Translations under genes and position numbers: made by a program
Shown: positions 665-38,711 of the stretch, piece by piece
Position numbering within the stretch: the stretch's first letter is position 1
Layout of the letters: each line of letters begins with the position of its first letter
Source: Candidatus Zixiibacteriota bacterium
Lineage (GTDB): Bacteria > Zixibacteria > MSB-5A5 > UBA10806
Assembly: GCA_024641335.1 (NCBI GenBank)
Contig: JAHEDG010000025.1
Span: forward strand, 1 to 38,711
Reading direction: 5' to 3'
DNA: 38,711 nucleotides
The notes under the pieces: model-generated
Seen by the model: only the letters and a program-made list of their open reading frames with translations
Database searches by the model: none
What the model was told of the DNA's origin: nothing

Positions 665-1518
665 GATACTTCTGGCGGATAATAATAGAGATTTCGCGGG
701 CGGTCAGGTTTCAGCCGTTATCGACATTCGGGACTCTGCTGACCATAGTCCTGGCCATGTCTTTTCCCGGTCTATTCTGGATAATGTCCAATAATCTATC
801 CGATATTCAAAGCGACCTTAAATCGGGGCTTACCGTGGACGTGTTTTTAGTCGACGACCTTCCGGATAAGGAGATAGAGAAGCTGCAACTTGAATTCAGC
901 GCTATGGACGGTGTTAACGGCGTTCAGTATCTTTCCAAACAGGACGCTTTATTCAAGATGCGCGAGCGATTCGGACGGGGTATGGTTCAGGGGCTCGATG
1001 ATAATCCTCTGCCCGCGTCGTTTGTATTATCGGTTGACCAGAAGATGTTCGAGATAAACGCGGCCGATTCGCTGTTAGCCGGGATCTCCCGCATACCGGC
1101 TGTGGAGGATGTGGTTTTCGCCAGGGAAATGCTCGATCGTCTTGACGAAATTGTTAGAATGGTGAAACTCCTGGGGCTGGCGATAGCTCTATTGATCGCT
1201 TTCTCGGCAGTTTTCATCTCCGCCAATACGGTGCGGATCGCTATCGCCGACCGCCGCAGGGCGGTGGAAATAATGCAGCTGGTCGGGGCCACCCGAAGCT
1301 ATATTCTGACTCCATTTGTCTCTCTCGGAGGGCTTATAGGTCTGATAGGGACATCGCTGGCGGTATTGCTGCTTCGTTTTTCCACAAATTATTTATCGCA
1401 GCGTCTGGTGGAGATACATTTTCTGGAAATACCTGATATCACGGCGTTTATTCTGTCCGGTATGCTCCTGGGAATGATCGGCGCCCTGATCGCTACCGGG
1501 AGATACCTGAAAATATGA
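661..1518 (+). CDS. ftsX: FtsX, cell-division permease-like protein
   Basis: Integral membrane partner of FtsE. It has 285 residues, normal for the family. There is one N-terminal membrane segment (about 20-45), then a periplasmic domain of about 120 residues holding the typical 'VDVFL' and 'VQYLSKQDAL' stretches, then three further membrane segments. The conserved 'ELVGAT'-like motif of FtsX appears as 'QLVGATRSYI' before the last two segments. The periplasmic loop is the known docking site for the amidase activator, which fits envC directly downstream. It overlaps ftsE by 4 bp and envC by 4 bp. Confidence 0.94.
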   Translation: MRYFWRIIIEISRAVRFQPLSTFGTLLTIVLAMSFPGLFWIMSNNLSDIQSDLKSGLTVDVFLVDDLPDKEIEKLQLEFSAMDGVNGVQYLSKQDALFKMRERFGRGMVQGLDDNPLPASFVLSVDQKMFEINAADSLLAGISRIPAVEDVVFAREMLDRLDEIVRMVKLLGLAIALLIAFSAVFISANTVRIAIADRRRAVEIMQLVGATRSYILTPFVSLGGLIGLIGTSLAVLLLRFSTNYLSQRLVEIHFLEIPDITAFILSGMLLGMIGALIATGRYLKI

Positions 1519-2666
1519 GATTTCCTTTTCGAAGAATGCCGCTTCTGCTTCTGGTTTTTCTGATCGGAGCCGGAATAACTGCGGCCGACGATGAGAATTC
1601 GAGACAGAATGAGATCGAATCTCTTCGAGAGGAACTGGAATCGAAAAGATCGCGGCAGGAAGCTCTCGGCGAAAAGGAAAAAGATATAATTTTCAAATTG
1701 CGGGATATCGAGGAGCAGATCGCTCTTTCGAGCCAGCTTATCCTGAAAATAGACCGGGAATCGAGAAATCTCGACCGCGGGATAATATCTCAGGAAGGGG
1801 AATTACAAACCTCCAGGGAGCTGATGACTCGCAAGGAAAAAGTGCTGCACGAGAGATTACGTTACATTTACAAATTCGGGGATATGCCGGGCTGGATGGG
1901 GCTGATATCGTCTCCCGACCCGACCGGCGCGTTGGCGGCGTTGAAAAACATGCGCGCCCTGGTTTCGTACGACAGACATCTGGTACGTTCCTACAACGAA
2001 CTATCGGCGGCAGTCGAATTCAAAATCGTCAAATTGCTGAACGACCGCGGGACATTGGATGACCTTAAGGAAAAGTACTTGGAGGAAATCCGGATGAGGG
2101 AAACAGCCCTGGATACCCGGAAGAGACTGCTGATCCGTGTCCGCGGCGACAAATCGCATCTCGAAAAGTCGATTGAGAACCTGGAGGATGACGTAATACG
2201 GGTGGCCGGTATTTTTGATGATATCCAGGCCGAAAGCGAGGACGATACGATTGCGCTGAATCTTCCGGGGCTGAATAACTCCAGAGGCGATCTGATCTGG
2301 CCGGTTCATGGGAAGATTCTAAGCGAGTTCGGCACAAACAAAGACAAAAGAGGAATCAAGCTGACCAATCCGGGGATCGATATCAAAGCATCCATCGGCG
2401 CCAATGTCAAATCGGCGGCATCCGGCAGGATAATTTATATCAGCTGGCTGAGAGGGTACGGTCAGTTTATTATTATCGATCACGGCCGCGGGTATTATAC
2501 TCTCTATTCCAATCTCGACGATATATTCGTGGAGCCGGGAGATAATGTGCTTGCCGGAGAAGTGATAGCCAGGGCCGGGGAATCGGGCTATTTCGACAGC
2601 CCCAGTCTTCATTTCGAACTGCGGCTCAAAAAAGAGCAACTGAATCCTGTGGAATGGCTGCGGTAG
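1515..2666 (+). CDS. envC: EnvC-like amidase activator (degenerate LytM/M23)
   Basis: Periplasmic partner of FtsEX that activates septal amidases rather than cutting peptidoglycan. A signal peptide (about 1-24) is followed by a long charged coiled coil (about 28-250) and a C-terminal LytM/M23 domain (about 260-383). Two of the zinc ligands expected in active M23 enzymes are replaced. The first motif reads NPGID, with N285 where His is expected and D289 kept. The third reads YSNL, with N333 in place of His. H366 in LHFEL remains. E. coli EnvC is likewise catalytically dead, so this supports the activator role. The start codon overlaps the ftsX stop (ATGA). holB follows after 4 bp. Confidence 0.88.
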   Translation: MRFPFRRMPLLLLVFLIGAGITAADDENSRQNEIESLREELESKRSRQEALGEKEKDIIFKLRDIEEQIALSSQLILKIDRESRNLDRGIISQEGELQTSRELMTRKEKVLHERLRYIYKFGDMPGWMGLISSPDPTGALAALKNMRALVSYDRHLVRSYNELSAAVEFKIVKLLNDRGTLDDLKEKYLEEIRMRETALDTRKRLLIRVRGDKSHLEKSIENLEDDVIRVAGIFDDIQAESEDDTIALNLPGLNNSRGDLIWPVHGKILSEFGTNKDKRGIKLTNPGIDIKASIGANVKSAASGRIIYISWLRGYGQFIIIDHGRGYYTLYSNLDDIFVEPGDNVLAGEVIARAGESGYFDSPSLHFELRLKKEQLNPVEWLR

Positions 2667-6899: not shown

Positions 6900-9066
6900 C
6901 CAGCGTTTTGATCCGTTCGACGGCTGACTTGCCTCGGGGACTATCGGGCATTAACTCAATGAATTTTCGATAGTAGACGAGAGCGGCGGATGTGTCGTTG
7001 AGATTGCGATCATAGATCGAACCGAGATTATAATATATTTGAGGATCGGGATCGGGCATAGCCAGAGCCTCCTGGAACTTCTTGAGCGCTTCATGATATC
7101 GACGGGCGTTCAGGTTGATATAGGCATCCGACAAGGCCAGGTTATAGCGGGCTTCGGAATTTCTTTTATTCATATGGATAGCGTCGCGGTAAAACTTCGC
7201 GGCTTCGTCGAACCTGTGGGCGTCCCTTTTCATATTACCGAGATTGGTCAGGATATCCGATTTGACCTTATTGGTCAGATGAGGGGCAGCCAGAGCTTTT
7301 TCATATTCCTTTTGGGCCAGAACCGGCCAGCCGGTCCTGCGAAAAAAAACTCCGAGAGCGTTATAGACCAAAGGATTGTTCAGTTTATCCCCCTCCTCCC
7401 GCGCTTTGCGGTAATTGTCCACAGCCCCCCGGTTATCCCCGCCGCGATTAAGGTGTTCTCCCAAAGAGAGATAGATATTGCAAAGCATTGTCCGGCCTTT
7501 GAAATCGAGAGCGCCGGCAGAAATCTCATTGAACCGCAGTTCATAGCTATTCAGGACAGCGTTGTCCAGCGGCCATTTGCCCTGTTTATAGACCAGGCCG
7601 TACGAAGTCAGATCGAGAAGATGATATTTAAAGGGATTCACCCCGGGCAATAAATGTTCTTTAACTATAAACAGATTTTCAAGACCGCTGTTGAACAGAT
7701 CGATACAAAGCTCATCGGGCGATTGGTTTGTTCGGGCTGTCCGACGATAAACTATCTCGGCCAGACGGCGAACCGTTACCGCTCGGTCGTAGACGGTCAG
7801 ATCGGGCCGGACCGATTCGGCGTAGCGAAGATACAGAAGCGGGAAGGTGGCGTTATCACCGACCGTTAAGAGATAGGAACCCGTGGGAAGCGAATTCAGA
7901 ATACTCAAGCCGTATGAATAAGCTATTGTATTATCCGATTGATCGTTGGTTTTCAGGTTTCCCATAAAGGAGATGACCACAGCGAGAATAGACACTATGG
8001 AAGCGCCGTATTTGTTTATGGATGGGGGCAGTTTTTCGAATATCGATTTGATCAGAGCTATAAATCCGATACTCAGGGCGATTATGGATGGAAGATAATA
8101 CTGATCCATATCGGGGATATCGTAGAGCGCGTTGAGCAATAAATTGAAAACAATAATGGATGAGAGAATTATCGCGGCGGTTTTTCTTTTTCCGAACAAA
8201 ACAATCAGCCCGGCGAACCCTCCGAAAATCAGATACAACGGATACTGCCGGCCGAGAATTCCGGAGGCCCTGACTATATTTTCGAAAAATCCCGGCAGGC
8301 CGGATGACGATAGATAGAGCTCATACCTGGCAGCGGTAACATGCTCGAGCAAGGCCGAAAAAGCGGCCGGGTGATTCCAGTCAGCTATAGGATATTGCGA
8401 TGATCGAACAGGAAGATATAGATACAATGTCAGTCCTAAAAATAAGAGCGCCGCGCCGTACCCGTATTGCTTCAGATCTAATTTTGATTTTAGGGCGGAA
8501 TAACCGACTGCCGGCAATATCGCCAGAGCCGAAAGGTGGTTGGTCATAGCGAGAGAGAAAAGATAGATTCCGGCCATGAGCCAGACGAAGTCGCCGTTCT
8601 CCTCGAATTTCAGCAGAAAGAACAATATCAGAACAACCAGCAGCGCGGAGAGAGAATAGACCTCGAAACCGGAGGATGTCCCCCAGAGGGCATCGGCAAA
8701 ACCCCATATCAAGGCGCCGGCCGACGATATAACCATAGGGAAAATACCATCCCTCTTCCCGGCCGGAAAGACGATCATCCTGACCACCAGGGCCATGACT
8801 CCCACAGAGGCCGCGGAGAACATGGAGGATAAAATATTTAATAGATAAGCCTGATTTCCGAACGCTATCTCGGCGAAAATCCGGCCGATCAAGATCAGAA
8901 GAGGATATCCCGGGGGGTGAGCTATCCCCAGAGTGACCGCGGCCAGCGAAAGCTCGGCCGAATCGCCTGTATAGACTGTCGGACAGACAGTTTTCAGATA
9001 TACGGCCAGCGAAGCGGCGAATGATATGAAAAAGAACGTTTTATTATTCCCTTTGAATTTTATCAT
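6892..9066 (-). CDS. DUF2723/GT117 membrane glycosyltransferase with C-terminal TPRs
   Basis: Multi-spanning inner-membrane protein of the DUF2723 family (GT117, related to protein O-mannosyltransferases), probably moving a sugar from a lipid carrier to an exported acceptor. The N-terminal signature 'YTGDSAELSLAAVTLG' with 'AHPPGYPLL' holds the acidic residue and HPPGYP loop typical of the family. About ten hydrophobic segments follow, then a non-membrane region and three to four TPRs in the last 170 residues ('EARYNLALSDAYINL', 'QIYYNLGSIYDRNL'). The frame is open to a TTG at 9102. That TTG forms part of a promoter -35 and the T tract of the upstream gene's terminator, so ATG 9066 (or 9072) is preferred. 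The acceptor is unknown; nearby secreted repeat proteins are candidates. Confidence 0.85.
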   Translation of the reverse strand: MIKFKGNNKTFFFISFAASLAVYLKTVCPTVYTGDSAELSLAAVTLGIAHPPGYPLLILIGRIFAEIAFGNQAYLLNILSSMFSAASVGVMALVVRMIVFPAGKRDGIFPMVISSAGALIWGFADALWGTSSGFEVYSLSALLVVLILFFLLKFEENGDFVWLMAGIYLFSLAMTNHLSALAILPAVGYSALKSKLDLKQYGYGAALLFLGLTLYLYLPVRSSQYPIADWNHPAAFSALLEHVTAARYELYLSSSGLPGFFENIVRASGILGRQYPLYLIFGGFAGLIVLFGKRKTAAIILSSIIVFNLLLNALYDIPDMDQYYLPSIIALSIGFIALIKSIFEKLPPSINKYGASIVSILAVVISFMGNLKTNDQSDNTIAYSYGLSILNSLPTGSYLLTVGDNATFPLLYLRYAESVRPDLTVYDRAVTVRRLAEIVYRRTARTNQSPDELCIDLFNSGLENLFIVKEHLLPGVNPFKYHLLDLTSYGLVYKQGKWPLDNAVLNSYELRFNEISAGALDFKGRTMLCNIYLSLGEHLNRGGDNRGAVDNYRKAREEGDKLNNPLVYNALGVFFRRTGWPVLAQKEYEKALAAPHLTNKVKSDILTNLGNMKRDAHRFDEAAKFYRDAIHMNKRNSEARYNLALSDAYINLNARRYHEALKKFQEALAMPDPDPQIYYNLGSIYDRNLNDTSAALVYYRKFIELMPDSPRGKSAVERIKTLEK

Positions 9067-9073
9067 AGACATG

Positions 9074-9102
9074 ATTATAGCCAAACGGATTTTCTCCGGC
9101 AA
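9074..9102 (-). promoter_or_regulatory. Putative promoter, leaderless start of the GT117 gene
   Basis: On the minus strand TTGCCG (9102-9097), a 17-nt spacer, and a perfect TATAAT (9079-9074). The ATG at 9066 lies 7 nt past the -10, about where transcription would begin, so the message may be leaderless. No Shine-Dalgarno sits at a normal distance from ATG 9072 or 9066. Confidence 0.5.
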
Positions 9103-9157
9103 TATAAAACGGGGCTCTCCATCATTTACCGATAAACGAAAATCCGGAAAACCCCGT
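9100..9157 (-). terminator. Likely terminator of the Ig-repeat/dockerin gene
   Basis: ACGGGG (9109-9114) and CCCCGT (9152-9157) form a 6-bp stem, with partial further pairing of CTCTCC to GGAAAA inside. On the minus strand the stem is followed by TTTTATATT. The large loop (about 25-37 nt) lowers confidence. Confidence 0.5.
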
Positions 9158-9193
9158 GAAAACTCTTATGTATTTCAAGCACCCGATATCGGG

Positions 9194-12100
9194 CTAATCC
9201 TCTCGGTCCTCTGTCTTGCCGGTCACAGGCGCCCCGGTGCTGATGATAATTGGCGTATCATTCAGATCGTCCCTGAGAATCCAGCCTCCTGTAGGAGGGC
9301 AGGTGGGACAATAAGCTACGTGATCCACCAGATTAGTGAGGTAATTATAAAGATATACAACGTCCAACCCGTTGAAATTGCAGCTGCCGTTGGCATCCCC
9401 GCCGGCAAAGAACGGGTAGGTGGGCAGATTCGGACGGCAGTCGCAGGTATCAGGCAGATCCGGTCCGCTATGGAAATAGTTGACCATAGTGGTAATATCC
9501 AATCCGTTAATCGAAGCGTCGCTGTTGGCGTCTCCCGGTATGTACGAGCAGAAGCCCACGATCACGTTAACGGAGCAGGAATCAGTTTCGCCGCAGGCAT
9601 CGACACATGAAACGGATATGGTGTTTATTCCGGCCACGGGCGTAAAGCAGATCTCATTGCCGACCAAAGCTCCGCCGACCACATTTATGACCACGATATT
9701 GTTATCCGGGTCGTTAAACTCGAAGTTGTCCAGACATATCGGGCTGTAATCGCCGACTTCGATAATCATATCGTCGGGGCAGATAATTGTCGGGGGGGAG
9801 TTCAGGGAGACATCGATAGTAGTAGAGCACGAGGCGGTCAGGCCGCATGAATCTACGACTGTAAGGGTAATAATATTCTGGCCTATCAGGGGAATAAAAC
9901 AGATTTCATCCGCGTCATTGATTGTCCCTCCGGTAATTAGAACATCGGAGATGTTGTTATTCGGATCACCGTATGAAAATATCCCGAGGCAGACCTCGCC
10001 CATATCGCAAATAACTATGGAAGTATCGCCGGGACAGAAAACAACCGGAGGCTCATTTATCCCCTGCAAAGTAACATTTACCGATCCTGTATCGGCGGCT
10101 CCGCATTCATCCAGACAGACATATTGAACCTGGTATATACCATCGGAACCGGGGGTAAAACAGTATGTCGAACCGTCAAAGCTGCCGCCCCGTCCAGCCT
10201 GGATTACATAGCAGGAATCGAGATTGCCGTCAGGGTCAACTCCCCAGAACGGTCCCAGGCAGACTTCGGAGGGAGCGCAGGTAAAGGTAATGATCGTATC
10301 GGCGGGGACATTCACGGCCGGAGGAGCGTTGAGCCAGACTGTGACGACGGTGCGCGCCGTATCGGCGGCTCCGCAGGCATCGGTAACTATAAGAGATAGC
10401 TGGTTTTCTCCCTGTGACGGCACAAAGCAGATGGAACCGTCGGAGAAATACCCTCCGATCGCCTCGATCGACACTATATTGTTATCGGGATCGCTATAAG
10501 TATATCCCAATACGCAGGTCTCGGAGAGATCACAGACAAACAGATTTTCGGTATCCGGCCCCGACACGGTCGGAGGAGTGTTCAGGTCTATCGTTACCAG
10601 CGTAGTTGACGTATCAGCGGCGCCGCAAATATCGGTGACGATAATAGTCAGGGTATCGACTCCCTCGGTGGCCGTAAAACAGACCGTGCTGCCGTTTAAG
10701 ATTCCGCCGATAACATTAACCGATGAAATATTGTTATCAGGATCGGAACAGGTGAAACCGTCAAGGCAGATTTCCCCCGATTGGCAGACGAAAAGGCTGG
10801 TATCGTTGGGGCTTACGGCCGCGGGAGGGATGTTCAAAGAGACGGTTATATGGGTTACGCAGGTATCGCGCGCCCCGCACTCATCCCCTTTTATCAGCAT
10901 AATGGTATTAACCCCTTCCACCGGGATAAAACAGACCGAGCCGTCCAGGTAATTCCCGCCGACCACTTCGAGGTAATTATGATTATGATCCGGGTCGTCC
11001 CAGCCAAATCCGGGCAGACAGATTTCGCTGAAATCGCAAACGAAAAGCGAAGTATCCGCGGAGCAGACAGCGATTGGCGGAGAATTCACTGTGATATTCA
11101 CATTGGTTACCGACGTATCGGCGGCCCCGCAATCATCGACGCAGATCAGAGTTAACGTATTGATACCCTGAACCGGCATAAAGCAGACCGTATCGCCGTT
11201 CAGGACACCTCCGATCACCTCGACCGAGAGAAGATTGCCGTCCGGATCGCTCCAGGTAAATCCGGGCAGGCAGATCTCGGCCGGATAACAGATAAAAATA
11301 GATGTATCATTGGGGCTGGAGGCGACAGGCGGAGAGTTCAGGGCGCAGGGATCGGACAGGCAGGAGGACGAGAATTGAACTCCGTTGCCTTCATATACGA
11401 ATGCCCCGCTGAAACGGGCGCCGTAATTTTCTCCCAAAACCGCCCCGCAGGGATAGCTTTGTCCGGCAGTAATCATACCGTCGCTGTTATACGATAATCC
11501 CGTACCTGTACGGGAAGCGAATACAGTAATATTCGGGTCATTGGCCGGATCTGATCCTGCCTGACTCTGGTAGGGATCGGTTATGCCGGGATAGGTGTCT
11601 GTAAAGCCGGGAACGTCGCTGAGCCTGATCATGGAGTTTCCGAGGAATATCTGATTATCGGCAAACTCAACGTTGTGTCCGCTGGACCATATATTAAAAT
11701 CGATGGCACATCCGGTTATAGTCATTCTCATAAAATCGTTGGGATCTCCCTGACCGTTCCGCCATTCTCTGGTGGAAACATCCCACCATATCTCATATAG
11801 ATTTTCGGACCATTGATACCATCCCCAGCGATCATTCTGTTTATAGCAGACGCCGGAGGAGGTATCGCCGAATGTTTCGAAACCGGCTGTAAAGATATTG
11901 ATACCGGGCGACGGCGGCGAATCCAACACGGCCAGCACGCTTCCGTGGAACTGTTCAAGGGAATTACCGGCAGAATAGATATGCGCGGCCAGATTCCAAC
12001 TGCCTTGCCCGTCGACCCAGATATATACACCGCCGGAATCGGGCGGAGGCAGAGGCAGGGTCGGTTCTCCCATAAAATAGGAAGTATCCACCGGGTTATA

Positions 12101-30037: not shown

Positions 30038-31501
30038 TCATTTCAGAAGCAGGAGTTTTTTCGAGACTCTATGTGTATTGGTGTTCACCTGATAAAAATA
30101 GACGCCGCTGGAGACCCTGCTGCCGGCGCTGTTGCGACCGTCCCACGTGACGGTATGGGTTCCGGGCGGCAGGACATTATCAACTAATGTGGTAACCTTC
30201 TGACCGAGGATATTATAGATCGCGACTTGAACCGCGCCGGTTTGAGGAATATCGAATTTTATTATTGTCGTTGAATTGAAGGGATTGGGATAATTCTGGT
30301 AAAGATAAAAACGCCTGGGAATCTCTGCCGCCGCTTGTTTCGGCTGGCCGTACTGAATCGCCAGCGATTGAATTCCCGTCGCCGCGCCCCACCTTTCGCA
30401 AACCTGAAGCTCCCCTTTATCTATGAATATATCCTCGGGGTATTCGAATTGTCCCGGCGCGCTGCCCCGGGAGCCATAGACCAGAAGAATGCTATTGAGT
30501 CGGGGAACAAGCGCCGTGATCCTGTGTTTATAGCTGTCGAGCACATAGACGTCGCCGTTATCGTCGGTATCCACGGACTTTATAAAGGTTGGTTCGGTAA
30601 GCGGAAAATCGTATCGGTATTCCGCCATAATACGACCGGACGTGGACGAGTGGTAGCCCACAACCCGGTGGTTCCTCGAATCGGTGACATAGAATCGGTT
30701 TGGGAAGGAATCGGCTCGTGAGACAGCGATACCCGTGGGGTATCCTATACATCCGAAGGTCGATCCCCATGTCCCGAACGACGTCTCCAATACCCCATCG
30801 ATGGAAAAGCGAAATATTTTCGAACGAATCCCGTCGACAACATAAATATCGTCGTCGCTGTATTGCGTGGTCCTGTAATCGGCATAGTCCAGGGCTGTGG
30901 GCATTTCGAGGACATCGGGCCCGAAGGAACTTACCCAGATGAGGGAATCGAGAGTAATATCGTACCGAAACTTCACTACCCGCTGGTTACCCTGGTCGAG
31001 CACGTATATTCTATCATCGGCCAGATCGAAAAATCGTCCCTTTGATGATACCGTAACATCCACCGGCCCGGCGAAGTATTCCGCGGAGTCCGGGCCCTGT
31101 AAGGGCGGCGAAATCGAGCCTGACTGCCAACCTAACTCGTTTATCGGCACCTCGAAATAGGAAAGCGGCTTCTGGCGGCCGTAGGCTTTCAGGTTTACCG
31201 GCGTTCTTTGCCCGAAAAGGTCTTCGTCCAGCGAGAACGCCATGATTCTGTTAAGCGCGGCGTCACAGAAAAAATAAACATAGCGGACTTTGCTTCCCTG
31301 ATCCACCCGGATGAACGCACCTCCCGATGGTTGAGCGAAAGCCATGACCGTATCGCCGTACACAGCGTCGATATAATTCTGGCACATACGTACCGGCTCG
31401 GCGGTATCGAGGAAATAAGTGGGAGTGATCGTCGGCTGAGCGAATACCGCGCCCGCCGTAATGATAATGACAGTAAACGCGAATAAAATTCTATTTTTCA
31501 T
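30038..31501 (-). CDS. Secreted NHL-repeat propeller with C-terminal sorting domain
   Basis: A 487-residue exported protein. Signal peptide 1-21 (cleavage after VFA). NHL-type propeller blades fill about 40-385 ('IYVLDQGNQRVVKF', 'FYVTDSRNHRVVGY', 'VYVLDSYKHRITAL'). The tail starts with 'NYPNPFNSTTIIKFDIP' and holds a FlgD-like Ig fold ending 'GVYFYQVNT...KKLLLLK', the type used for type IX-like secretion and surface attachment in this group. ATG 31501 is chosen: GGAGG lies 5 nt upstream, inside the last codons of the preceding P4 gene. It occupies the place where an S gene would follow in the array, and probably shares its transcript. Confidence 0.87.
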   Translation of the reverse strand: MKNRILFAFTVIIITAGAVFAQPTITPTYFLDTAEPVRMCQNYIDAVYGDTVMAFAQPSGGAFIRVDQGSKVRYVYFFCDAALNRIMAFSLDEDLFGQRTPVNLKAYGRQKPLSYFEVPINELGWQSGSISPPLQGPDSAEYFAGPVDVTVSSKGRFFDLADDRIYVLDQGNQRVVKFRYDITLDSLIWVSSFGPDVLEMPTALDYADYRTTQYSDDDIYVVDGIRSKIFRFSIDGVLETSFGTWGSTFGCIGYPTGIAVSRADSFPNRFYVTDSRNHRVVGYHSSTSGRIMAEYRYDFPLTEPTFIKSVDTDDNGDVYVLDSYKHRITALVPRLNSILLVYGSRGSAPGQFEYPEDIFIDKGELQVCERWGAATGIQSLAIQYGQPKQAAAEIPRRFYLYQNYPNPFNSTTIIKFDIPQTGAVQVAIYNILGQKVTTLVDNVLPPGTHTVTWDGRNSAGSRVSSGVYFYQVNTNTHRVSKKLLLLK

Positions 31502-31503
31502 AA

Positions 31504-32520
31504 CTACCTCCATCCTACCCTGAGCCATGTAGCCTCGTTGGTGCGGGTATCGAAGATGAAAAGCATGGCGGGGGTATAATCTTCAAGGCCTCCGGGCTGG
31601 GCGAAATAATATACGATGAAATCATCCACGACATCGGCAACATCGAATTCATCCAATATATATTCTCCTTCAGGGTAATCGGGGATTACCAAAGAATCCA
31701 AAACCGTAAAATCAGCATTATTATAAATTATAACATGGCTTTGAATCCTATCCTCATCTCTTGATTTTCGGGTAAATTTACTATAAAACTCGAAATTCTG
31801 ATGGAAAACATACAAAAGACTGTCTATTACCGCAAAAACAATACTACGATGAGGATTATTGTTTATTCTAAGAGAATCGAGAATTGTACTTCTGTTCGTC
31901 TTTACAACATATCTATTTTCAGAATCCCAAGTTTTATAAAGTTGTCGAAGAGTATCCAAAGTCTCGTAAAAGTTAAAGCGCCCTAAATTCCTGAAGATGT
32001 TTGGCCTATATGAATTGGGATGTTGATTTATTAGCACAAATTGATAATTGCCAGTAATGTGAAAATCTCCTTTTATCAATCTTCGATTCGGATGCTTGAC
32101 TTCACTTGAAAGAAAAATAGAATTGTCCTGTTGGACGATGCTATTAATAATCATATTGGTATCTGAATAATCAAAAACCAGTTGTCTACTTTGAAAATCG
32201 ATAATTGACACGATTGAGGTTTTTATTCCGGGCACACTATTCTTACAATAACAACCCTGCATCACAGATGAAATAAGAAATGGGCTATTATTTATACGAA
32301 TGTGTACTGGTTTCCTGTTCAAGATATATCCTGAAGGCGCAATGGTAGTCTCGTCGGTAATGACTTTAGTATCCAAATTAATAAATTTTGTCTTTACGAG
32401 CATTAAATTACCGTTCGGATCTTCGTCATAGGTATTGACAACATATTCTTGAGCACGCGGATTAGACGTAATCCCTACTAGGAAAACGACGACTAATGCT
32501 ATTCTACCATAAGTTACCAT
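31504..32520 (-). CDS. Array partner protein P4 (secreted, unknown function)
   Basis: A 338-residue protein with a signal peptide (about 1-23, ending RAQ). Unknown family; strand-rich throughout, perhaps a beta-propeller. Features shared with P1-P3: 'EYVVNTY' after the signal, 'ILNRKPV', a Cys pair in 'GCYCKN', 'FHQNFEFYSKF', 'YPEGEYI' and the almost invariant tail 'PAMLFIFDTRTNEA' plus 'WLRVGWR'. It is closest to P2 (shared GCYCKN and 'YYF.Q...LE' near the end). The body is visibly more AT-rich than the tail. ATG overlaps the end of S4 by 17 bp, with AAGGAGG 10 nt upstream inside S4. Last P gene of the array. Confidence 0.8.
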   Translation of the reverse strand: MVTYGRIALVVVFLVGITSNPRAQEYVVNTYDEDPNGNLMLVKTKFINLDTKVITDETTIAPSGYILNRKPVHIRINNSPFLISSVMQGCYCKNSVPGIKTSIVSIIDFQSRQLVFDYSDTNMIINSIVQQDNSIFLSSEVKHPNRRLIKGDFHITGNYQFVLINQHPNSYRPNIFRNLGRFNFYETLDTLRQLYKTWDSENRYVVKTNRSTILDSLRINNNPHRSIVFAVIDSLLYVFHQNFEFYSKFTRKSRDEDRIQSHVIIYNNADFTVLDSLVIPDYPEGEYILDEFDVADVVDDFIVYYFAQPGGLEDYTPAMLFIFDTRTNEATWLRVGWR

Positions 32521-33349
32521 TATATTTCCACCTCCTTACGTTCTTCACGTAATTAGCCCAATCTATTTCAAGAAGTGTTTTTGGTTCAAATATCTTGCTA
32601 TGCCAAAGTTCAGCGTCTTCCAATGCCCACATACCGGGCTCGCCGGAATGGTATCCATAATTCGTTAAGTCCTCCTTATTTGGAGTTTTCGGAACAGAGT
32701 CACAAAGCGAATAAGGACAGGAATCTGGCCATGTTGGTTGTTCACCTCGGAGATCGTAGGTTAAAGCCGATAAGATCCACCATTTGGCGTTGAAGATATT
32801 CAGCTTCCAATTCCATGTGAGACTATCCCATGAGCAATAAATCCTGCCCTCGGGATAATGTTCATAATTTATTGTATCTTCGAAAACAGGCCCTAGCCAG
32901 CGTCTGTTCATTTGCATAATTCCTGAATCCCTGCTGGTGTTACCTTCACACGGAGTTCGCGTGTTATTCGGCCGGGTCGAATCGGCCTCCCAATAATTAT
33001 TCCATCTCGGCATTCCCCGATTAGCACCCTGATTAAACAGACCGGCTCCTTCCTGCCAGGCTATTGCTTTGAACCGTTCCGTGATCAGGCTATCTTCAAA
33101 GTTATCATTTGAGGGATCAACGTCAATTAATATCAGCTTCGTCGCCCTCGCCGTATCTTTAATCACGGTATCGGTGGTGGCGGTGAAGCGGTTGTCGATG
33201 TTGGGGATCGGCGACATCGCCCCAACGCCCGCGACCGTTAATGAGCCCCCGACCACGTACAGCGAATCGCGCCAGAATGTAGTGGCCGCGGCGTAGGTGG
33301 AATCGTTCCACCAGAGCCAGGTGGAGTCGGAGGATTCAAAAAATTCCAA
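32504..33349 (-). CDS. Array protein S4, lysozyme/SLT-like domain, no signal peptide
   Basis: A 281-residue protein. The head (about 1-80) holds 'STWLWWNDST' and 'RDSLYVVGGSLTV'. Then comes a lysozyme-fold/lytic transglycosylase-like signature: 'AIAWQEGAG' with E100 as the likely catalytic Glu, 'SGIMQMN' at about 142-148, and 'WNWKLNIFNAKWW', which fits the NI..G motif of SLT domains. The tail has 'YGYHSGE' and 'RRWKYNGNLW'. There is no signal peptide or membrane segment with any start. TTG 33349 is chosen because GGAGG lies 5 nt before it, inside the end of P3, and because it places the Glu at residue 100 as in S2 and S3. DNA of its head matches S3 while its middle matches S2. Peptidoglycan cleavage is inferred from motifs only. 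Confidence 0.75.
   Translation of the reverse strand: MEFFESSDSTWLWWNDSTYAAATTFWRDSLYVVGGSLTVAGVGAMSPIPNIDNRFTATTDTVIKDTARATKLILIDVDPSNDNFEDSLITERFKAIAWQEGAGLFNQGANRGMPRWNNYWEADSTRPNNTRTPCEGNTSRDSGIMQMNRRWLGPVFEDTINYEHYPEGRIYCSWDSLTWNWKLNIFNAKWWILSALTYDLRGEQPTWPDSCPYSLCDSVPKTPNKEDLTNYGYHSGEPGMWALEDAELWHSKIFEPKTLLEIDWANYVKNVRRWKYNGNLW
33066..33139 (-). repeat. 74-bp exact match between S4 and S2
   Basis: 33066-33139 is identical to 36800-36873. It codes for about residues 71-95 of the S protein, just before the catalytic Glu. With the junction tract it makes S4 a mosaic of S3-like head and S2-like core. Confidence 0.85.
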
Positions 33350-33426
33350 TCCTACCTCCATCCCACCCGCAGCCAGGCGGCCTCGTTGGTGCGGGTGTCG
33401 AAAATGAAGAGCATGGCGGGGGCGAA
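33189..33426 (-). repeat. Homogenised P-S junction tract, copy 1
   Basis: 33189-33333 (head of S4) matches 35076-35220 (head of S3) with about three mismatches, and 33353-33426 (tail of P3) matches 35242-35315 (tail of P2) with one. Between them lies a short unmatched spacer at the stop/start. GC-rich compared with flanking gene bodies. Confidence 0.85.
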
Positions 33427-34380
33427 CTGTGGAATTCCGTCGCCAATAAAATAGTAGTACACTATATAGGGACCGACAACGTCCGCAACTCCGAATTCGC
33501 CCCCAATGTAATCTCCCGGAGGATAATCAGGGATATATAATGAGTCAGCGAGCGATAAATCATCGATATTATATATCAAAAGATAACTGCTGATTCTATT
33601 ATCTTCGGGGCCTTTCCAAGTTGTCTCGCCATAAAATTCGTAATTTTGATTAAACACATAAAGCAAATTGTCAAAAGTTGCCACAAGTTGAGTTCTACGG
33701 GGGGAATTTGTTAACTTGAGTGAATCGATTATTGCATCCATGCTGTTACTTAGCTTTAAAACAAATCTATCTTCCGCTTGCCATGACATATATAGCTTTT
33801 CTTCATGCGAAATCGGAGTGAAAAAACTAAATCGACCTAATCCATGAATCGATTTTGGATTATATCCAAGCGGCCTTTGAGTTCGGAGCAAAAGTCGGAA
33901 ATTGCCATATAGAATGTAATCTCCACACATCCTCCGATGTAATCCTTCGAAGCTATTAGCGTCAATAAAAACGGATCCGTTTGGACCCTGCTCAAAATAA
34001 ATAAAGGCCATTCCGGAGTCAGCGAGTGAGCTTTCGAGCATTTTCGTTTGAGGATCAATAATTGTAATTCTGGTTTGATATGGCTGATCTGCCGAAGCAT
34101 TCGTGCACACACAACCCTCTCTAGAAGCGTTAATAAGGCGGGTACGGTGCCCTCTAATTATATTTAAGGACGTTTTGTTTAAGATTAATCCTCCCTGCCC
34201 ATAACTTATTTCAGAAACAATCGCCTTGGAATTTAAATTAATAAAAGCAGTTTTAATTTCCCTCAAGCCATCTATAGACTCATCACCATAGGTATTTATA
34301 GCATACTCTTGCGGGTATGCTGATAAAGTCATCGCTATTAGCAGTAGCGCGAAAATCAACAGTTTACCAAAGATTTCCAC
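33352..34380 (-). CDS. Array partner protein P3 (secreted, unknown function)
   Basis: A 342-residue protein with a signal peptide (about 1-23, 'LLIFALLLIAM'). Same family as P1, P2 and P4: 'EYAINTYGD', 'LILNKTS', the Cys pair in 'GCVCTN', 'FNQNYEFYGE', 'YPPGDYI' and the tail 'PAMLFIFDTRTNEA' with 'WLRVGWR'. The stretch before the tail ('YYYFIGDGIPQF') is closer to P1 than to P2 or P4. The start is GTG 34380 with AGGAGG 10 nt upstream inside the end of S3, overlapping S3 by 17 bp. Its last codons carry the ribosome site for S4. The final 74 bp of coding sequence are nearly identical to those of P2. Confidence 0.8.
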   Translation of the reverse strand: MEIFGKLLIFALLLIAMTLSAYPQEYAINTYGDESIDGLREIKTAFINLNSKAIVSEISYGQGGLILNKTSLNIIRGHRTRLINASREGCVCTNASADQPYQTRITIIDPQTKMLESSLADSGMAFIYFEQGPNGSVFIDANSFEGLHRRMCGDYILYGNFRLLLRTQRPLGYNPKSIHGLGRFSFFTPISHEEKLYMSWQAEDRFVLKLSNSMDAIIDSLKLTNSPRRTQLVATFDNLLYVFNQNYEFYGETTWKGPEDNRISSYLLIYNIDDLSLADSLYIPDYPPGDYIGGEFGVADVVGPYIVYYYFIGDGIPQFAPAMLFIFDTRTNEAAWLRVGWR

Positions 34381-35236
34381 GGTATTTAAACCTCCTAACC
34401 CATTTGACGTAATTTGCGCGATCCGTATCTATAGGCGTGGGCGGATCGAATATATACTTATCCCAGGCTACCTGATCTTTTAGTCTACGCATATTGCCTT
34501 CCCCCGCGTGATACCCATAGGTAGTCAAATCTTCTCTATTTGCTACCGAAGGAACTGAATCACAAACTAAATACGAACATGAATCTGGAAATAATTCCTG
34601 ACTCGGTCCTAACTTTCGCGGCAAAGCATCTGTCATTATCCAACTACCGTTATTGATATTCAATTGCCAATTCCATGCTAAACTATCCCATTGGCATACC
34701 GTGAACGTTTGAGGATACTCACCTTGATGTTCTGTTGAGTCGAAAGTGGTTTCCCAGGTTGTTCTGAAGATCTGCATAATTCCAGTATCAGTACCAATTC
34801 GATTTTCACAAGGCAGTCTGGTATCAAGACAGGTATCCCCTTGTGAGTAAACAAAATTATCCCAATAATGATTCCACTGTGGATTATATGACCATATTCC
34901 CTCATGACAATGAGCGGGATCTGAACTACCGGCATACTCCTGCCAAGCTACTGCTCTGATTCTGTCGGTGCGCAGGGTATCACTTAATAAAGCGTTCGAC
35001 GGATCCCGATCCACGATTATCAGCTTCGTCGCCCGGTTGGTGTCGTTTATCACTGTATCGGTGGTGGCTGTAAAACGGTTGTCTATGTTGGGGATCGGCG
35101 ACATCGCCCCAACGCCCGCGACCGTTAATGAGCCCCCGACCACGTATAGCGAATCGCGCCAGAATGTAGTGGCCGCGGCGTAGGTAGAATCGTTCCACCA
35201 GAGCCAGGTGGAGTCGGAGGGGTTAAAGTAATTCAC
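34364..35236 (-). CDS. Array protein S3, lysozyme/SLT-like domain, no signal peptide
   Basis: A 290-residue protein with the same plan as S4: head 1-80, then 'AVAWQEYAG' with E100, a longer insert containing 'CHEGIWSYNPQWNHYW', 'TGIMQIF' at 151-157, 'WNWQLNINNGSWI' at 188-200, 'YGYHAGE' and the end 'RRFKYRGNLW'. The insert and the TRLPCENR segment are shared with S1, not with S2 or S4. The frame is open further upstream into the end of P2, but GTG 35236 has GGAGG 7 nt before it and gives the same Glu position as S2 and S4. No signal peptide. An active-site Glu plus GIMQ and NI..G are the basis for the call. Confidence 0.75.
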   Translation of the reverse strand: MNYFNPSDSTWLWWNDSTYAAATTFWRDSLYVVGGSLTVAGVGAMSPIPNIDNRFTATTDTVINDTNRATKLIIVDRDPSNALLSDTLRTDRIRAVAWQEYAGSSDPAHCHEGIWSYNPQWNHYWDNFVYSQGDTCLDTRLPCENRIGTDTGIMQIFRTTWETTFDSTEHQGEYPQTFTVCQWDSLAWNWQLNINNGSWIMTDALPRKLGPSQELFPDSCSYLVCDSVPSVANREDLTTYGYHAGEGNMRRLKDQVAWDKYIFDPPTPIDTDRANYVKWVRRFKYRGNLW

Positions 35237-35315
35237 AAGATTACCTCCATCCCACCCGCAGCCAGGCGGCCTCGTTGGTGCGGGTGTCGAAGATGAAGAG
35301 CATGGCGGGGGCGAA
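35076..35315 (-). repeat. Homogenised P-S junction tract, copy 2
   Basis: Partner of the tract at 33189-33426. The flanking P bodies and S C-terminal parts are far more diverged, so this junction was copied between units recently. Confidence 0.85.
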
Positions 35316-36269
35316 ATTTTCCAAATCATTTGACTGCCCGAAATAATATACAATATAATTACCTATAACGTCAGTCACGCCAGAAGATCCGCTAATATAA
35401 TCTTCTTGGCTATAATCCGGAACTGAAATAGAATCTAGTAGATTAAAGCTGTAAATATCATAAATTTTAACGCTCGAATCGATCCAATTCTGGCCATAAC
35501 CTTTCACAATCTTATCTTTAAAATGAATCTCATAATTGAGATTGAAAACATATAATAAATTATCCGCGACAGCGAACAAATGATTGCTACTCTTATAAGG
35601 GCGACAGCGTAGGGAGTCAGCTAATTGCTGGTTCGTAGGATCGGTTTTAATAACGTAATAGTGCTCATCGTAAGAATCATAATAAATATTTTCATGGATT
35701 AGTCGTGGAAAAGTGAACACGTTAAGGCTGTCAAGAGATCCAGTAGTATAACCGACCGGCGCGTTTTCAATAAACGATAGGGCATATTGAGTTGTTAGTC
35801 CATAAATACCGTTAATAACCGGTACGTTATCAGAGTTTCCAGAAGCGCTTACGTATAATCTGTTAAAGTTCATTGAATTTAAATCGAGAAGTGAATAATT
35901 TGCCAGCAATTGAGTATTCAATATGTTGCCCGTTACAACATTTACGCAGATTATTCTGGAACTTCCCGTATCCGGGGCTGTATTCTTGCAATAACACCCA
36001 GAGTTAATCGCGGTTAAAAGTATATTTCTATTAAAAACGTTTAATGGAACAGGTTTAATATTTAGTATTTCTCCTTCCGTTGCCAGCGGAATCTCATCAA
36101 TAACATTCTTAGATTCTAAGTCTATTGCCTTTGTAGATATGGCGTAATAGTTGGAATTATCATCATTTGGAGTATAGCAATTGACGTAGTAAACTTGTGT
36201 TAATGCTATCTTTAAATTACAAAAGAAGATAATAATAGTAATGAACAACAGTTTACCATAGGTTTCCAT
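35241..36269 (-). CDS. Array partner protein P2 (secreted, unknown function)
   Basis: A 342-residue protein with a signal peptide (about 1-24). Family features: 'VYYVNCYT', 'ILNIKPV', 'GCYCKNTAP', 'FNLNYEIHFKD', 'DYSQEDYI', tail 'PAMLFIFDTRTNEA' with 'WLRVGWR'. It resembles P4 most. The body (about 35340-36250) is strikingly AT-rich beside the GC-rich tail, which is nearly identical in DNA to the tail of P3. ATG 36269 overlaps S2 by 17 bp, with AAGGAG 11 nt upstream inside S2. Confidence 0.8.
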   Translation of the reverse strand: METYGKLLFITIIIFFCNLKIALTQVYYVNCYTPNDDNSNYYAISTKAIDLESKNVIDEIPLATEGEILNIKPVPLNVFNRNILLTAINSGCYCKNTAPDTGSSRIICVNVVTGNILNTQLLANYSLLDLNSMNFNRLYVSASGNSDNVPVINGIYGLTTQYALSFIENAPVGYTTGSLDSLNVFTFPRLIHENIYYDSYDEHYYVIKTDPTNQQLADSLRCRPYKSSNHLFAVADNLLYVFNLNYEIHFKDKIVKGYGQNWIDSSVKIYDIYSFNLLDSISVPDYSQEDYISGSSGVTDVIGNYIVYYFGQSNDLENFAPAMLFIFDTRTNEAAWLRVGWR

Positions 36270-37083
36270 TATATTTCCATCTCCTTACTTTCCGCGCGTA
36301 ATCGGCAAAATCGTCAGTACCTTCTAATATATATTCCTTCCACTTGTCATCTGTTGTGATCTTTTTCATACGCGTTTCTCCTGCGTGATATCCGTAATTG
36401 GAAAGATCCTCTTTGTTTGCTTTTCTTGGCAATGAATCGCAGTTGGTATATGAACATGAATCAGGCCATAGTTTTTGCGTATCCGTCATTACAGAACACA
36501 ACGCAGCTTCTGTCCACCATTTAGCGTTAAATATATTCAATTTCCAATTCCATGTTAAACTATCCCACTCACAATAGAATCGACCTTCCGGATAGCTGCC
36601 ATCATATGAACCATTAAATACTTTTTCAAGTACGTGCCTGTTCAATTGCATAATACCGGAGTCTTTACTACCATCGCCCTCGCACGGCATTCGAGAATTA
36701 TTCGGCCTGGTCGAATCGGCCCCCCAATAGTTATTCCACCTTGGCATTCGACGGTTTCTCCCTTGATTGTTCATACCAGCGCCTTCCTGCCAGGCGATAG
36801 CTTTGAACCGTTCCGTGATCAGGCTATCTTCAAAGTTATCATTTGAGGGATCAACGTCAATTAATATCAGCTTAGTCGCATGTGCCGTATCGTTAATCAC
36901 CGTATCCGTAGTCGCGCTGAAACTATTGTCTATATTAAGAACATGCTTCAACGCGCCGGAACAATCCACGCTCAACGATCCGCCGACTACGTAAAGGGAA
37001 TCTCTGAAAAATGTGACTGCACTTGAATCTCTGGTCTTATTCCACCATAAATAGGTGGAGTCTGAGGGATAAGAGGGAACCAA
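36253..37083 (-). CDS. Array protein S2, lysozyme/SLT-like domain, no signal peptide
   Basis: A 276-residue protein. Head with 'STYLWWNKTRDSS' and 'RDSLYVVGGSLSV' (more diverged than in S3 and S4), 'AIAWQEGAG' with E100, 'MPRWNNYWGADSTRPNN' shared with S4, 'SGIMQLN', 'WNWKLNIFNAKWW', 'YGYHAGE' and 'RRWKYNGNLW'. TTG 37083 is the first start after the P1 stop and has GGAGG 6 nt upstream inside the last codons of P1. It is in the same frame as P1, separated by one TAG, but other P-S junctions are not in frame. No signal peptide. Confidence 0.75.
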   Translation of the reverse strand: MVPSYPSDSTYLWWNKTRDSSAVTFFRDSLYVVGGSLSVDCSGALKHVLNIDNSFSATTDTVINDTAHATKLILIDVDPSNDNFEDSLITERFKAIAWQEGAGMNNQGRNRRMPRWNNYWGADSTRPNNSRMPCEGDGSKDSGIMQLNRHVLEKVFNGSYDGSYPEGRFYCEWDSLTWNWKLNIFNAKWWTEAALCSVMTDTQKLWPDSCSYTNCDSLPRKANKEDLSNYGYHAGETRMKKITTDDKWKEYILEGTDDFADYARKVRRWKYNGNLW

Positions 37084-37086
37084 CCT

Positions 37087-38175
37087 CTACCTCCATCCTA
37101 CCCGCAACCAGGTCGCCTCATTGGTGCGGGTATCGAAGATGAAAAGCATGGCGGGATTAAATCGACCCATCCAATCGTCCTCAAAGAAATAATAGACTAT
37201 AAAATCACCGACAACATCCGCTATACCGTTTTCTCTGCCAGGATAATCGCCCTCCGGATAATCCGCAACCGGAAGCTGTTCCAATAATTCAAGGCTGATC
37301 GGATCGTAGATCAATACTTCCGGTTCTATATAATAATCTTCGCGGTATTTATGCGTATATTGACCATGCATTTCATAATTGAGATGGAAGCAATAAAACC
37401 TGTTGCGGTCGGGATGATAAGCATAAATAGTCGCTTGTCCTCCGCTTTGCCGCAATTGTAAAGAATCAACAACCGCGTCGTTTCCATCATTAAGTTTGAC
37501 CAACCAATATTGGCTGTTATAAAAAGAGTGATAGAGATGATATCTATCGCTCTCCCATATTTTACGCAATAGGGAATAACCGTCCAAATTACCTATACTG
37601 CCCGGAATTTCGTTTATTGGTACGCCTCGTTCGAACTCAAATCTGTCATTTCTATTTAATCCATAAACGCCAGGTCGCAAGATGACAACATTCCCTGTAT
37701 CACTTACAATACCTAATCTGAAACCCTGTTCATAAGGCACCTTATACAGTAGATTTATATTGGCTGCTGAGATTTCATCTCGCCGTAAATCATGTATATT
37801 ACCATTTTGATTAAAAAATAGTGCATAATGTAAATTAGACAGGCCGGACGTAAAACCAGAGTTTTTTGCCATCATACCGTTCGCCCAGAAGGATATCAAA
37901 AAAGTTCCTCGGGTATTGGAAACGGTCATAGGAGTCCTATTGAGAATAGTCCCTGAATCCGCTAAAACCGTACTATCGATAATTTCCTGTTGATCCAAGT
38001 CAACCATAATGGTATGAATCTGCATAAAATTTGAAGCGGAATCTCCGTGAGAAACATAAGCATTAATAAAGTACGTTTGACCTACCGATATACCGGTCAA
38101 TGTTAAGAAAACGCAAGCCATAATAAAAAGAAAATTACACAATCGCCGGTGATAATTATTCCCACGGCTTTTCAT
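37087..38175 (-). CDS. Array partner protein P1 (secreted, unknown function)
   Basis: A 362-residue protein, the most diverged P copy. The N-terminus has a longer basic region, then a hydrophobic signal ('FLFIMACVFLTLTGISV'). Family features: 'TYFINAYV', 'TILNRTPM', 'FHLNYEMHGQYTHKY', 'YPEGDYPG', tail 'PAMLFIFDTRTNEA' with 'WLRVGWR'. The Cys pair of the other copies is lost (GMMAKN). ATG 38175 is preferred over an upstream ATG at 38211 because it gives the same short overlap (20 bp) with the S gene before it as in other units. Confidence 0.78.
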   Translation of the reverse strand: MKSRGNNYHRRLCNFLFIMACVFLTLTGISVGQTYFINAYVSHGDSASNFMQIHTIMVDLDQQEIIDSTVLADSGTILNRTPMTVSNTRGTFLISFWANGMMAKNSGFTSGLSNLHYALFFNQNGNIHDLRRDEISAANINLLYKVPYEQGFRLGIVSDTGNVVILRPGVYGLNRNDRFEFERGVPINEIPGSIGNLDGYSLLRKIWESDRYHLYHSFYNSQYWLVKLNDGNDAVVDSLQLRQSGGQATIYAYHPDRNRFYCFHLNYEMHGQYTHKYREDYYIEPEVLIYDPISLELLEQLPVADYPEGDYPGRENGIADVVGDFIVYYFFEDDWMGRFNPAMLFIFDTRTNEATWLRVGWR

Positions 38176-38711
38176 AATAAAATCCTCTGACTTTTTGAAC
38201 ATAATCAGCATCCTCTCTTATGGGAGGTATCGTATCGCATATGATCTCCGTCCATAACGCGTCATTTACGATTATTTTCATATCTTGTTCTCCAGCATGA
38301 TAACCATACGATTTGAGATCTTCCTTGTTCTTCTTGGAGGGAAAATTCCCACAATCCGTGAACGCACATGAATCGGGAAACAACTTTTGTTGGCTAGTAA
38401 ATTCCGCAGGATAGTACGTGTCATGAATGTACTTTCCATTGAATATATTAATCTGCCAATTCCAGGTCAGACTATCCCATTTAACCTGTAAATATCCATC
38501 AGGTTTATTGTTTGGGGCGCTGAAAAACGGCCCCCAACCCCAACCGACACCCTTTCTGAATATTTGCATAATCCCGGTATCCAGACCCCATCGATTTTCA
38601 CAAGGCAGTCTGGTATCGATGCAGGTATCCCCTCGCGAGCTGACAAAGGTATCCCAGTAATGATTCCACTGTGGATTATAGGTTGCTGTACCCTCGTGGC
38701 AATGCGCCGGA
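38156..38711 (-). CDS. Array protein S1, lysozyme/SLT-like, 5' part beyond window
   Basis: Partial gene; its frame is open to the right edge. The visible 184 residues start in 'AHCHEGTATYNPQWNHYWD', as in S3, then 'TRLPCENRWG', 'DTGIMQIF', 'WNWQINIFNGKYI' and 'YGYHAGE', ending 'YYEKPWE'. The catalytic Glu lies just outside the window. It belongs to the S3 subtype. The array therefore continues upstream of position 38711. Confidence 0.72.
   Translation of the reverse strand, partial: PAHCHEGTATYNPQWNHYWDTFVSSRGDTCIDTRLPCENRWGLDTGIMQIFRKGVGWGWGPFFSAPNNKPDGYLQVKWDSLTWNWQINIFNGKYIHDTYYPAEFTSQQKLFPDSCAFTDCGNFPSKKNKEDLKSYGYHAGEQDMKIIVNDALWTEIICDTIPPIREDADYVQKVRGFYYEKPWE

What the first reader, a model, noticed from the sequence alone, without database searches (positions are those of the whole stretch)
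31504..38711. Tandem array of lysozyme-like (S) and secreted partner (P) gene pairs: possible effector/partner system
Seen: four S-P pairs in a row on the minus strand, with no spacing. S proteins carry a lytic-transglycosylase-like signature (E100 in AWQE, GIMQ, WNW..NI) yet have no signal peptide; P proteins all have one. Known: peptidoglycan-cutting effectors of contractile secretion systems lack a Sec signal, while their immunity proteins are periplasmic, and the toxin gene comes first with a stop/start overlap. Inferred: the pairs could be antibacterial effector/immunity modules or enzyme/inhibitor pairs. P proteins are large for immunity proteins and no delivery system is seen here. Another reading is a remnant of once-larger secreted enzymes.
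Basis: partly seen in the sequence, partly recalled or inferred. Interest (0 to 1): 0.8.

Follow-up and report, generated by a model that had tools for sequence, protein, structure and literature searches.

The report
Lysozyme-like enzyme and propeller cassette array
An uncultured Zixibacteria genome carries a tandem array of paired genes, each pair a probable cell-wall-cutting enzyme that lacks an export signal plus an exported beta-propeller protein, arranged like the interchangeable toxin-and-antidote cassettes bacteria use against rivals, although neither the toxicity nor the delivery route has been shown.

Summary
The array is real: S1-P1-S2-P2-S3-P3-S4-P4 on the minus strand, S1 cut by the contig end, followed by an NHL-propeller gene with a T9SS tail (N). 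S is probably a divergent SLT (GH23-like) enzyme: all SLT motifs occur in order, but Pfam SLT scores far below cut-off and the S structure prediction failed. P has a signal peptide and a confident beta-propeller model. S and P were found in only 3-4 of 133 Zixibacteria genomes. Every S is followed by an overlapping P; four further P genes do not directly follow an S; no S lacks a P. The boundary (P 3' end plus S 5' end) is constant, GC-rich and conversion-prone; S cores and P bodies are variable and AT-rich. This resembles the orphan toxin/immunity cassettes of CDI and Rhs loci, and known inhibitors of peptidoglycan hydrolases (Tsi1, XAC2610, PliI) are propeller-like. Contractile delivery is not supported: no sheath or TssC gene in this genome or in G003, G004 or G007. 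A programmed P-S fusion is excluded because all three relative frames occur. No full-length exported parent was found, but the contig ends inside S1. Best reading: toxin/immunity-like cassette array with unknown, non-contractile delivery (about 0.5).

The parts
38156..38710 (-). S1, 3' part only (184 aa), truncated by the contig end; SLT motifs GIMQ, NIFNGK, YGYHAG, YV..VR
37087..38175 (-). P1, exported beta-propeller protein (start ATG 38175, overlapping the S1 stop); the longest frame starts at 38211
36253..37083 (-). S2, SLT-like enzyme without signal peptide (TTG start, in frame 0 relative to P1)
35241..36269 (-). P2, exported beta-propeller
34364..35236 (-). S3, SLT-like enzyme without signal peptide (GTG start, frame +1 relative to P2); weak Pfam SLT match E=0.22
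33352..34380 (-). P3, exported beta-propeller; the modelled protein (pLDDT 84)
32504..33349 (-). S4, SLT-like enzyme without signal peptide (TTG 33349, or ATG 33361; frame -1 relative to P3)
31504..32520 (-). P4, exported beta-propeller, last of the array
30038..31501 (-). N: NHL-repeat propeller with signal peptide and T9SS C-terminal sorting domain, coupled to P4 through the same GGAGG in the P 3' end
37087..37155 (-). constant P1 3' end (PAMLFIFDTRTNEATWLRVGWR + stop, contains the SD for S2)
35241..35309 (-). constant P2 3' end with SD for S3
33352..33420 (-). constant P3 3' end with SD for S4
31504..31572 (-). constant P4 3' end with SD for N
35057..35236 (-). S3 constant N-terminal region (up to 98% nt identity with S4; GC 0.58)
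33170..33349 (-). S4 constant N-terminal region (GC 0.60)

Best explanation
A tandem array of toxin/immunity-like cassettes. Each cassette is S (a short constant N-terminal region followed by an SLT-type peptidoglycan-cleaving domain) plus P (a periplasmic or secreted beta-propeller that binds and blocks its S). S lacks a signal because it is a displaced or stand-alone C-terminal cassette, comparable to orphan cdiA-CT/cdiI modules. If made, it could act in the periplasm only when joined to an exported N-terminal part or carried by an unidentified non-contractile exporter. P protects the cell envelope. Translation is chained: the S stop overlaps the P start, and the constant P 3' end carries the ribosome-binding site of the next gene. 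The constant P-end/S-start boundary is a homology anchor through which S core + P body cassettes recombine. Shown: gene order, overlaps, constant boundary, mosaic identity, GC contrast, P signal peptides, P propeller model. Inferred: SLT activity, P as inhibitor, cassette exchange, delivery.
For: Every S is followed by an overlapping P (5 of 5: four here, one in G003), while four P genes do not directly follow an S (G003 two, G007, G004) and no S lacks a P. SLT motifs occur in order in all S. hhalign of the S core against SLT beats 0 of 100 shuffles in local mode and aligns GIMQ, NI.NG, YGYHAG and YV..V in register. P is a propeller (pLDDT 84; Foldseek E to 5e-7 against propellers), and three known PG-hydrolase inhibitors share a propeller-like fold (PMC10933484, PMC3391265). 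Mosaic blocks of 72-98% nt identity shared by different unit pairs indicate gene conversion. The constant P end has GC 0.58-0.68 against P bodies 0.35-0.40; array GC3 is 0.35-0.54 against 0.59-0.63 in neighbours. Distribution is patchy (S in 3 and P in 4 of 133 phylum genomes) with differing gene neighbourhoods. Orphan CDI cassettes likewise lack signals, carry a short constant 5' stretch and sit in arrays (PMC3150448; PMC3482391).
Against: No full-length exported parent of S was found in G000 or in the closed genome G003. All S cores are homologous, whereas polymorphic toxin arrays usually carry unrelated toxin domains. S and P trees do not match: S2-S4 and S1-S3 are closest, but P3-P4 is closest, so pair specificity is not supported. 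The P-N linkage (G000, G003, G007) is as constant as the S-P linkage. The S fold is unconfirmed, global-mode hhalign was not significant (11 of 100 shuffles as good), and HMMER scores of S against an SLT model were within shuffles for most copies. No assay exists.
Confidence: 0.5

Rival explanations
1. A non-toxic envelope module: P and N are surface or periplasmic propellers (binding, adhesion or surface coat) and S is an accessory cell-wall enzyme that makes room for them; the array is an amplified, diversifying surface system rather than a weapon.
For: P and N co-occur: N full-length orthologues only in the four genomes with P. N has a T9SS tail. P bodies diversify more than S (27-36% against 37-64% identity within the array). 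P and N occur without an intact S in G007.
Against: S has no export signal in any copy, which a housekeeping envelope enzyme would need. The overlap of S with P is the tightest linkage. The constant S N-terminus homogenised with the P end is not expected for a simple accessory enzyme.
Confidence: 0.25
2. A decaying remnant of once-larger secreted enzymes, duplicated in tandem, with S now unexpressed or useless.
For: S starts are weak and signals are missing. G007 keeps only a frame-broken P-S relic on contig C78. A lookalike enzyme gene in G003 (L088) directly follows a transposase-like gene and is probably truncated.
Against: All four S frames and the G003 S are open without stops, with low dN against saturated dS, conserved motifs, and conserved overlaps and SD sequences. 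This indicates selection on the coding sequence.
Confidence: 0.15
3. Effectors of a contractile injection system (T6SS or eCIS) with periplasmic immunity proteins.
For: No Sec signal on S, signal on P, toxin-first order with stop/start overlap. The closest biochemical analogue is Tse3/Tsi3, an SLT-fold effector with an exported immunity protein (PMC3792639).
Against: No sheath PF04984 in 10 genomes, and no VipB/TssC PF05943 except in G008, which has no S or P. G000 is estimated 100% complete. No secretion genes in the window.
Confidence: 0.05
4. P and S are made as one exported fusion by programmed frameshifting or readthrough.
For: P has the signal, S follows within 4 nt, and S2 is in frame with P1 past a single TAG.
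Against: The S frame relative to the preceding P is 0, +1 and -1 in the three complete window junctions, and +1 in G003 (read), and a GGAGG lies just before each S start, so re-initiation is the simple reading.
Confidence: 0.03

Closest known systems
Orphan cdiA-CT/cdiI and rhs-CT/rhsI modules of CDI and Rhs loci (PMC3150448, PMC3482391)
   Same: Tandem toxin-then-immunity pairs on one strand; toxin fragment without signal peptide and with weak initiation; short constant 5' stretch; extra immunity genes; recombination between cassettes.
   Different: All S cores are one enzyme family; the immunity candidate is exported; the constant anchor includes the 3' end of P; no full-length parent gene found; Zixibacteria.
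Tse3/Tsi3 (T6SS muramidase with SLT fold and exported immunity protein; PMC3792639)
   Same: SLT-type enzyme without a Sec signal; partner with a signal peptide.
   Different: No T6SS here; P is a ~340-aa propeller; tandem array; no sequence similarity found in PDB searches.
X-Tfe XAC2609 / X-Tfi XAC2610 (Xanthomonas T4SS lysozyme-like effector and propeller-like immunity lipoprotein; PMC10933484), with Tsi1 and PliI
   Same: Lysozyme-like enzyme without Sec signal paired with a periplasmic propeller-like inhibitor.
   Different: T4SS delivery there, not tested here; the solved inhibitors are smaller; P has no obvious lipobox; no sequence relation found.
TANFOR polymorphic toxins of Bacteroidetes (PMC7073777)
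   Same: T9SS-tailed proteins enriched next to toxin genes, as N is next to the array.
   Different: TANFOR proteins are large with Sec signals and mostly nuclease-type toxins; S has neither signal nor N-terminal delivery domain.

Membership tests
SLT / GH23-like lytic transglycosylase (S) | Catalytic Glu, G-[LI]-M-Q, N-I-x-x-G, Y-N/H-A-G motifs in order | tested here: met
   motif positions in S1-S4 and G003 (Glu not covered in truncated S1; G003 has GTMQ and YGYYQG); alignment
SLT / GH23-like lytic transglycosylase (S) | Score above Pfam SLT cut-off | tested here: not met
   only S3 matches, 11.6 bits against 21.3; others none
SLT / GH23-like lytic transglycosylase (S) | Lysozyme fold | tested here: inconclusive
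   model pLDDT 30, uninformative
Beta-propeller with signal peptide (P) | All-beta propeller fold after an N-terminal signal | tested here: met
   (many propellers E<1e-3, TM 0.3-0.4 only)
Contractile (T6SS/eCIS) effector-immunity pair | Contractile apparatus in the genome | tested here: not met
Orphan polymorphic toxin cassette array | Tandem toxin-immunity pairs, immunity gene directly downstream, toxin fragment without signal | tested here: met
   for order and signals; toxicity and immunity themselves untested
Orphan polymorphic toxin cassette array | Constant 5' stretch homologous to a full-length exported parent toxin | tested here: inconclusive
   constant stretch present; no parent in 133 genomes, but the contig ends inside S1
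Orphan polymorphic toxin cassette array | Unrelated toxin domains behind the constant stretch | tested here: not met
   all S cores homologous, 37-64% identical
Orphan polymorphic toxin cassette array | Cognate immunity (P neutralises its own S) | not testable with these tools
   needs expression assays; S and P trees are not congruent
T9SS substrate (N) | Signal peptide and Por_Secre_tail C-terminal domain | tested here: met
   PF18962 36.5 bits over cut-off 27; TIGR04183 44.8 bits over 23
T4SS effector (X-Tfe) | T4SS in genome and XVIPCD-type signal | not tested

The most novel reading that the evidence does not exclude
A peptidoglycan-lyase/propeller toxin-immunity system in Zixibacteria that is not contractile but linked to the type IX secretion pathway, with a new cassette logic in which the recombination anchor is the 3' end of the immunity gene joined to the 5' end of the next toxin, carrying the ribosome-binding site; the enzyme can be swapped for others, as suggested by lookalike modules (DCSGF or HExxH protein - exported partner - NHL/T9SS protein).
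Probability: 0.25. Interest if true: 0.75.

Novelty: new variant of a known kind. Interest (0 to 1): 0.5.

Why it matters
If right, it extends cassette-type toxin/immunity arrays to an uncultured phylum, pairs an SLT-type cell-wall enzyme with a propeller inhibitor, and offers a testable case of a T9SS-associated route for cell-wall toxins. It also shows a boundary in which the end of one gene is protein motif, ribosome-binding site and recombination anchor at once.

Tried and rejected
Phmmer/hmmsearch of S and P against PDB gave nothing credible. NCBIfam and PHROGs gave nothing credible. Viral contigs, phages and plasmids had no relatives. Programmed P-S fusion was rejected by the frames. A search for the parent protein with the G003 S N-terminal extension gave only the array copies, the G007 relic and chance-level hits; the nine best of those inspected were unrelated proteins. 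Other copies of the constant P end in the genome: none besides the four. S versus the large exported proteins of L090/L091: no detectable similarity.
Full report
Observation. The window is an entire contig (C21 of G000, 2.86 Mb in 98 contigs, estimated 100% complete). On the minus strand it ends with S1(partial)-P1-S2-P2-S3-P3-S4-P4 and then N, an NHL-repeat protein with signal peptide and T9SS tail. Each S stop lies inside the start of the following P (17 nt overlap; about 20 for S1-P1). Each complete S begins 2-4 nt after a P stop, and the GGAGG of its ribosome-binding site is part of the last codons of P, G-W-R-stop. The relative frame of P to S is 0 (S2), +1 (S3) and -1 (S4), and +1 in relative G003, so programmed fusion is not the explanation. 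S lacks a signal, P has one.

Relatives. The nearest named relatives are Candidatus Zixiibacteriota MAGs. Among 133 genomes of the phylum, S occurs in G000, G003 and as a relic in G007, and P in those plus G004. G003, a single-contig genome, has P-P-S-P-N. G007 has P-N at a contig edge and, on another contig edge, a decayed P end followed by a frame-broken S start. G004 has a lone P and, on another contig, N beside the YbbR-like and TsaD genes, as in the window. N full-length orthologues occur only in these four of ten close genomes. The other P-bearing loci have different neighbours (tuf and ribosomal genes; heterodisulfide-reductase-like genes; nuo-type genes). No homologues were found in phage, plasmid or viral-contig collections.

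What S is. Pfam gives one sub-threshold SLT match (S3, 11.6 bits, cut-off 21.3). The motif series [AG]W[QK]E - G[IT]MQ - NI.N[AG] - YGY[HY].G - YV..VR is kept in all copies that cover it (S2 has DYARKVR). Profile alignment to the SLT domains of the same order places GIMQ, NI.NG, YGYHAG and YV..V in register; its local score is reached by none of 100 column shuffles, but the formal probability is low, global mode was not significant (11 of 100 shuffles as good), and single-sequence HMM scores are mostly within shuffles. I therefore call S a probable, divergent SLT/GH23-like enzyme. The Glu-to-GIMQ spacing is about 46-55 residues, wider than the roughly 20 in ordinary SLT domains of these genomes. 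S has 4-6 Cys, which suits an oxidising compartment (inference). S is under purifying selection.

What P is. The AlphaFold2 model has pLDDT 84 and is all-beta after the signal helix. Foldseek against PDB returns propellers (AADH, BtuG-type and YVTN surface proteins) with E to 5e-7 but low TM-scores, so the family within propellers is open. The P body is 15-36% identical between copies, while the last 22 residues, PAMLFIFDTRTNEATWLRVGWR, are almost invariant. In that stretch nucleotide identity is 77-98% with dS often between 0.1 and 1, even between genera. It occurs nowhere else in the genome.

Cassette anatomy. The P end (GC 0.58-0.68) plus the first 180 nt of S (0.58-0.60 in S3 and S4, 0.46 in S2) forms a constant, GC-richer boundary. 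S cores (0.42-0.45) and P bodies (0.35-0.40) are AT-richer than the genome (window 0.50), with GC3 0.35-0.54 against 0.59-0.63 in neighbours. Blocks of high identity are shared by different unit pairs (S3-S4 up to 98% at the S start, S2-S4 up to 97% further in, S1-S3 up to 83% in the core), with 40-60% between blocks, which is a gene-conversion pattern. S and P distances are not congruent.

Interpretation. Three of three fragmented assemblies break at or beside this locus (G000 in S1, G007 at S and P, G004 just upstream of N), which is compatible with strain variation or repeats there (inference). P always follows S and occurs without S; S never occurs without P. P shares the propeller type of fold with Tsi1, XAC2610 and PliI, which inhibit peptidoglycan hydrolases (PMC10933484, PMC3391265). 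Orphan cdiA-CT/cdiI arrays show the same combination of a signal-less toxin fragment, a short constant 5' stretch, a downstream immunity gene and recombination (PMC3150448, PMC3482391). I therefore rank a toxin/immunity-like cassette array first (0.5). Delivery by a contractile machine is not supported; T4SS could not be tested; the T9SS-tailed N next to the array makes T9SS a candidate, as proposed for TANFOR toxins (PMC7073777), but S itself carries neither signal nor T9SS tail. A full-length exported parent is missing, and in G003 it is missing from a closed chromosome; this is the main weakness. The main rival is a non-toxic envelope module built on P and N.

Lookalikes. A search with N turned up three further loci of the form enzyme-like gene - exported partner - NHL/T9SS gene. 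L088 has a protein with DCSGF (NlpC/P60-like by motif only), directly downstream of a transposase-like gene, followed by a signal-bearing propeller. L090 and L091 have about 820-aa proteins with signal peptides and HExxH, followed by HEAT-repeat proteins. None of the enzyme assignments was confirmed by profile searches, so this is a lead only.

Verdict. Real, conserved, and unusual; a new variant of a known kind if the cassette reading is right. No function is demonstrated.

Noticed in passing
L088 (G003) 7044-10106, minus strand: Gene with DCSGF motif and no signal peptide, directly downstream of a REP-type transposase-like gene, then an exported propeller, then an NHL/T9SS gene: the same three-part layout as S-P-N with a different enzyme-like gene.
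   Followed up: partly
L090 5855-10650 (G008) and L091 5236-10064 (G003), minus strand: Related modules: ~820-aa exported protein with HExxH (HEKYH / HEAYH), exported HEAT-repeat protein, NHL/T9SS protein; no Pfam match for the large protein.
   Followed up: partly
window 31504-31572, 33352-33420, 35241-35309, 37087-37155: The 3' end of P is nearly constant in DNA across genera while the rest of P is 15-36% identical; it doubles as the SD of the next gene.
   Followed up: yes
window 38711 edge; L023 edge; L022 edge; L087 edge: Contigs of all three fragmented P-bearing genomes break at or next to this array.
   Followed up: no
L024 (G004) 6960-8036, plus strand: Solitary P gene with the full constant C-terminus but no S or N next to it.
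   Followed up: partly
G000 genome: About 87 places match the N protein, mostly its T9SS tail, indicating heavy use of T9SS-type sorting in this Zixibacteria genome; T9SS core genes were not searched.
   Followed up: no
window 661-2666, plus strand: FtsX-like and M23 peptidase genes, an ordinary cell-wall division module, far from the array.
   Followed up: no
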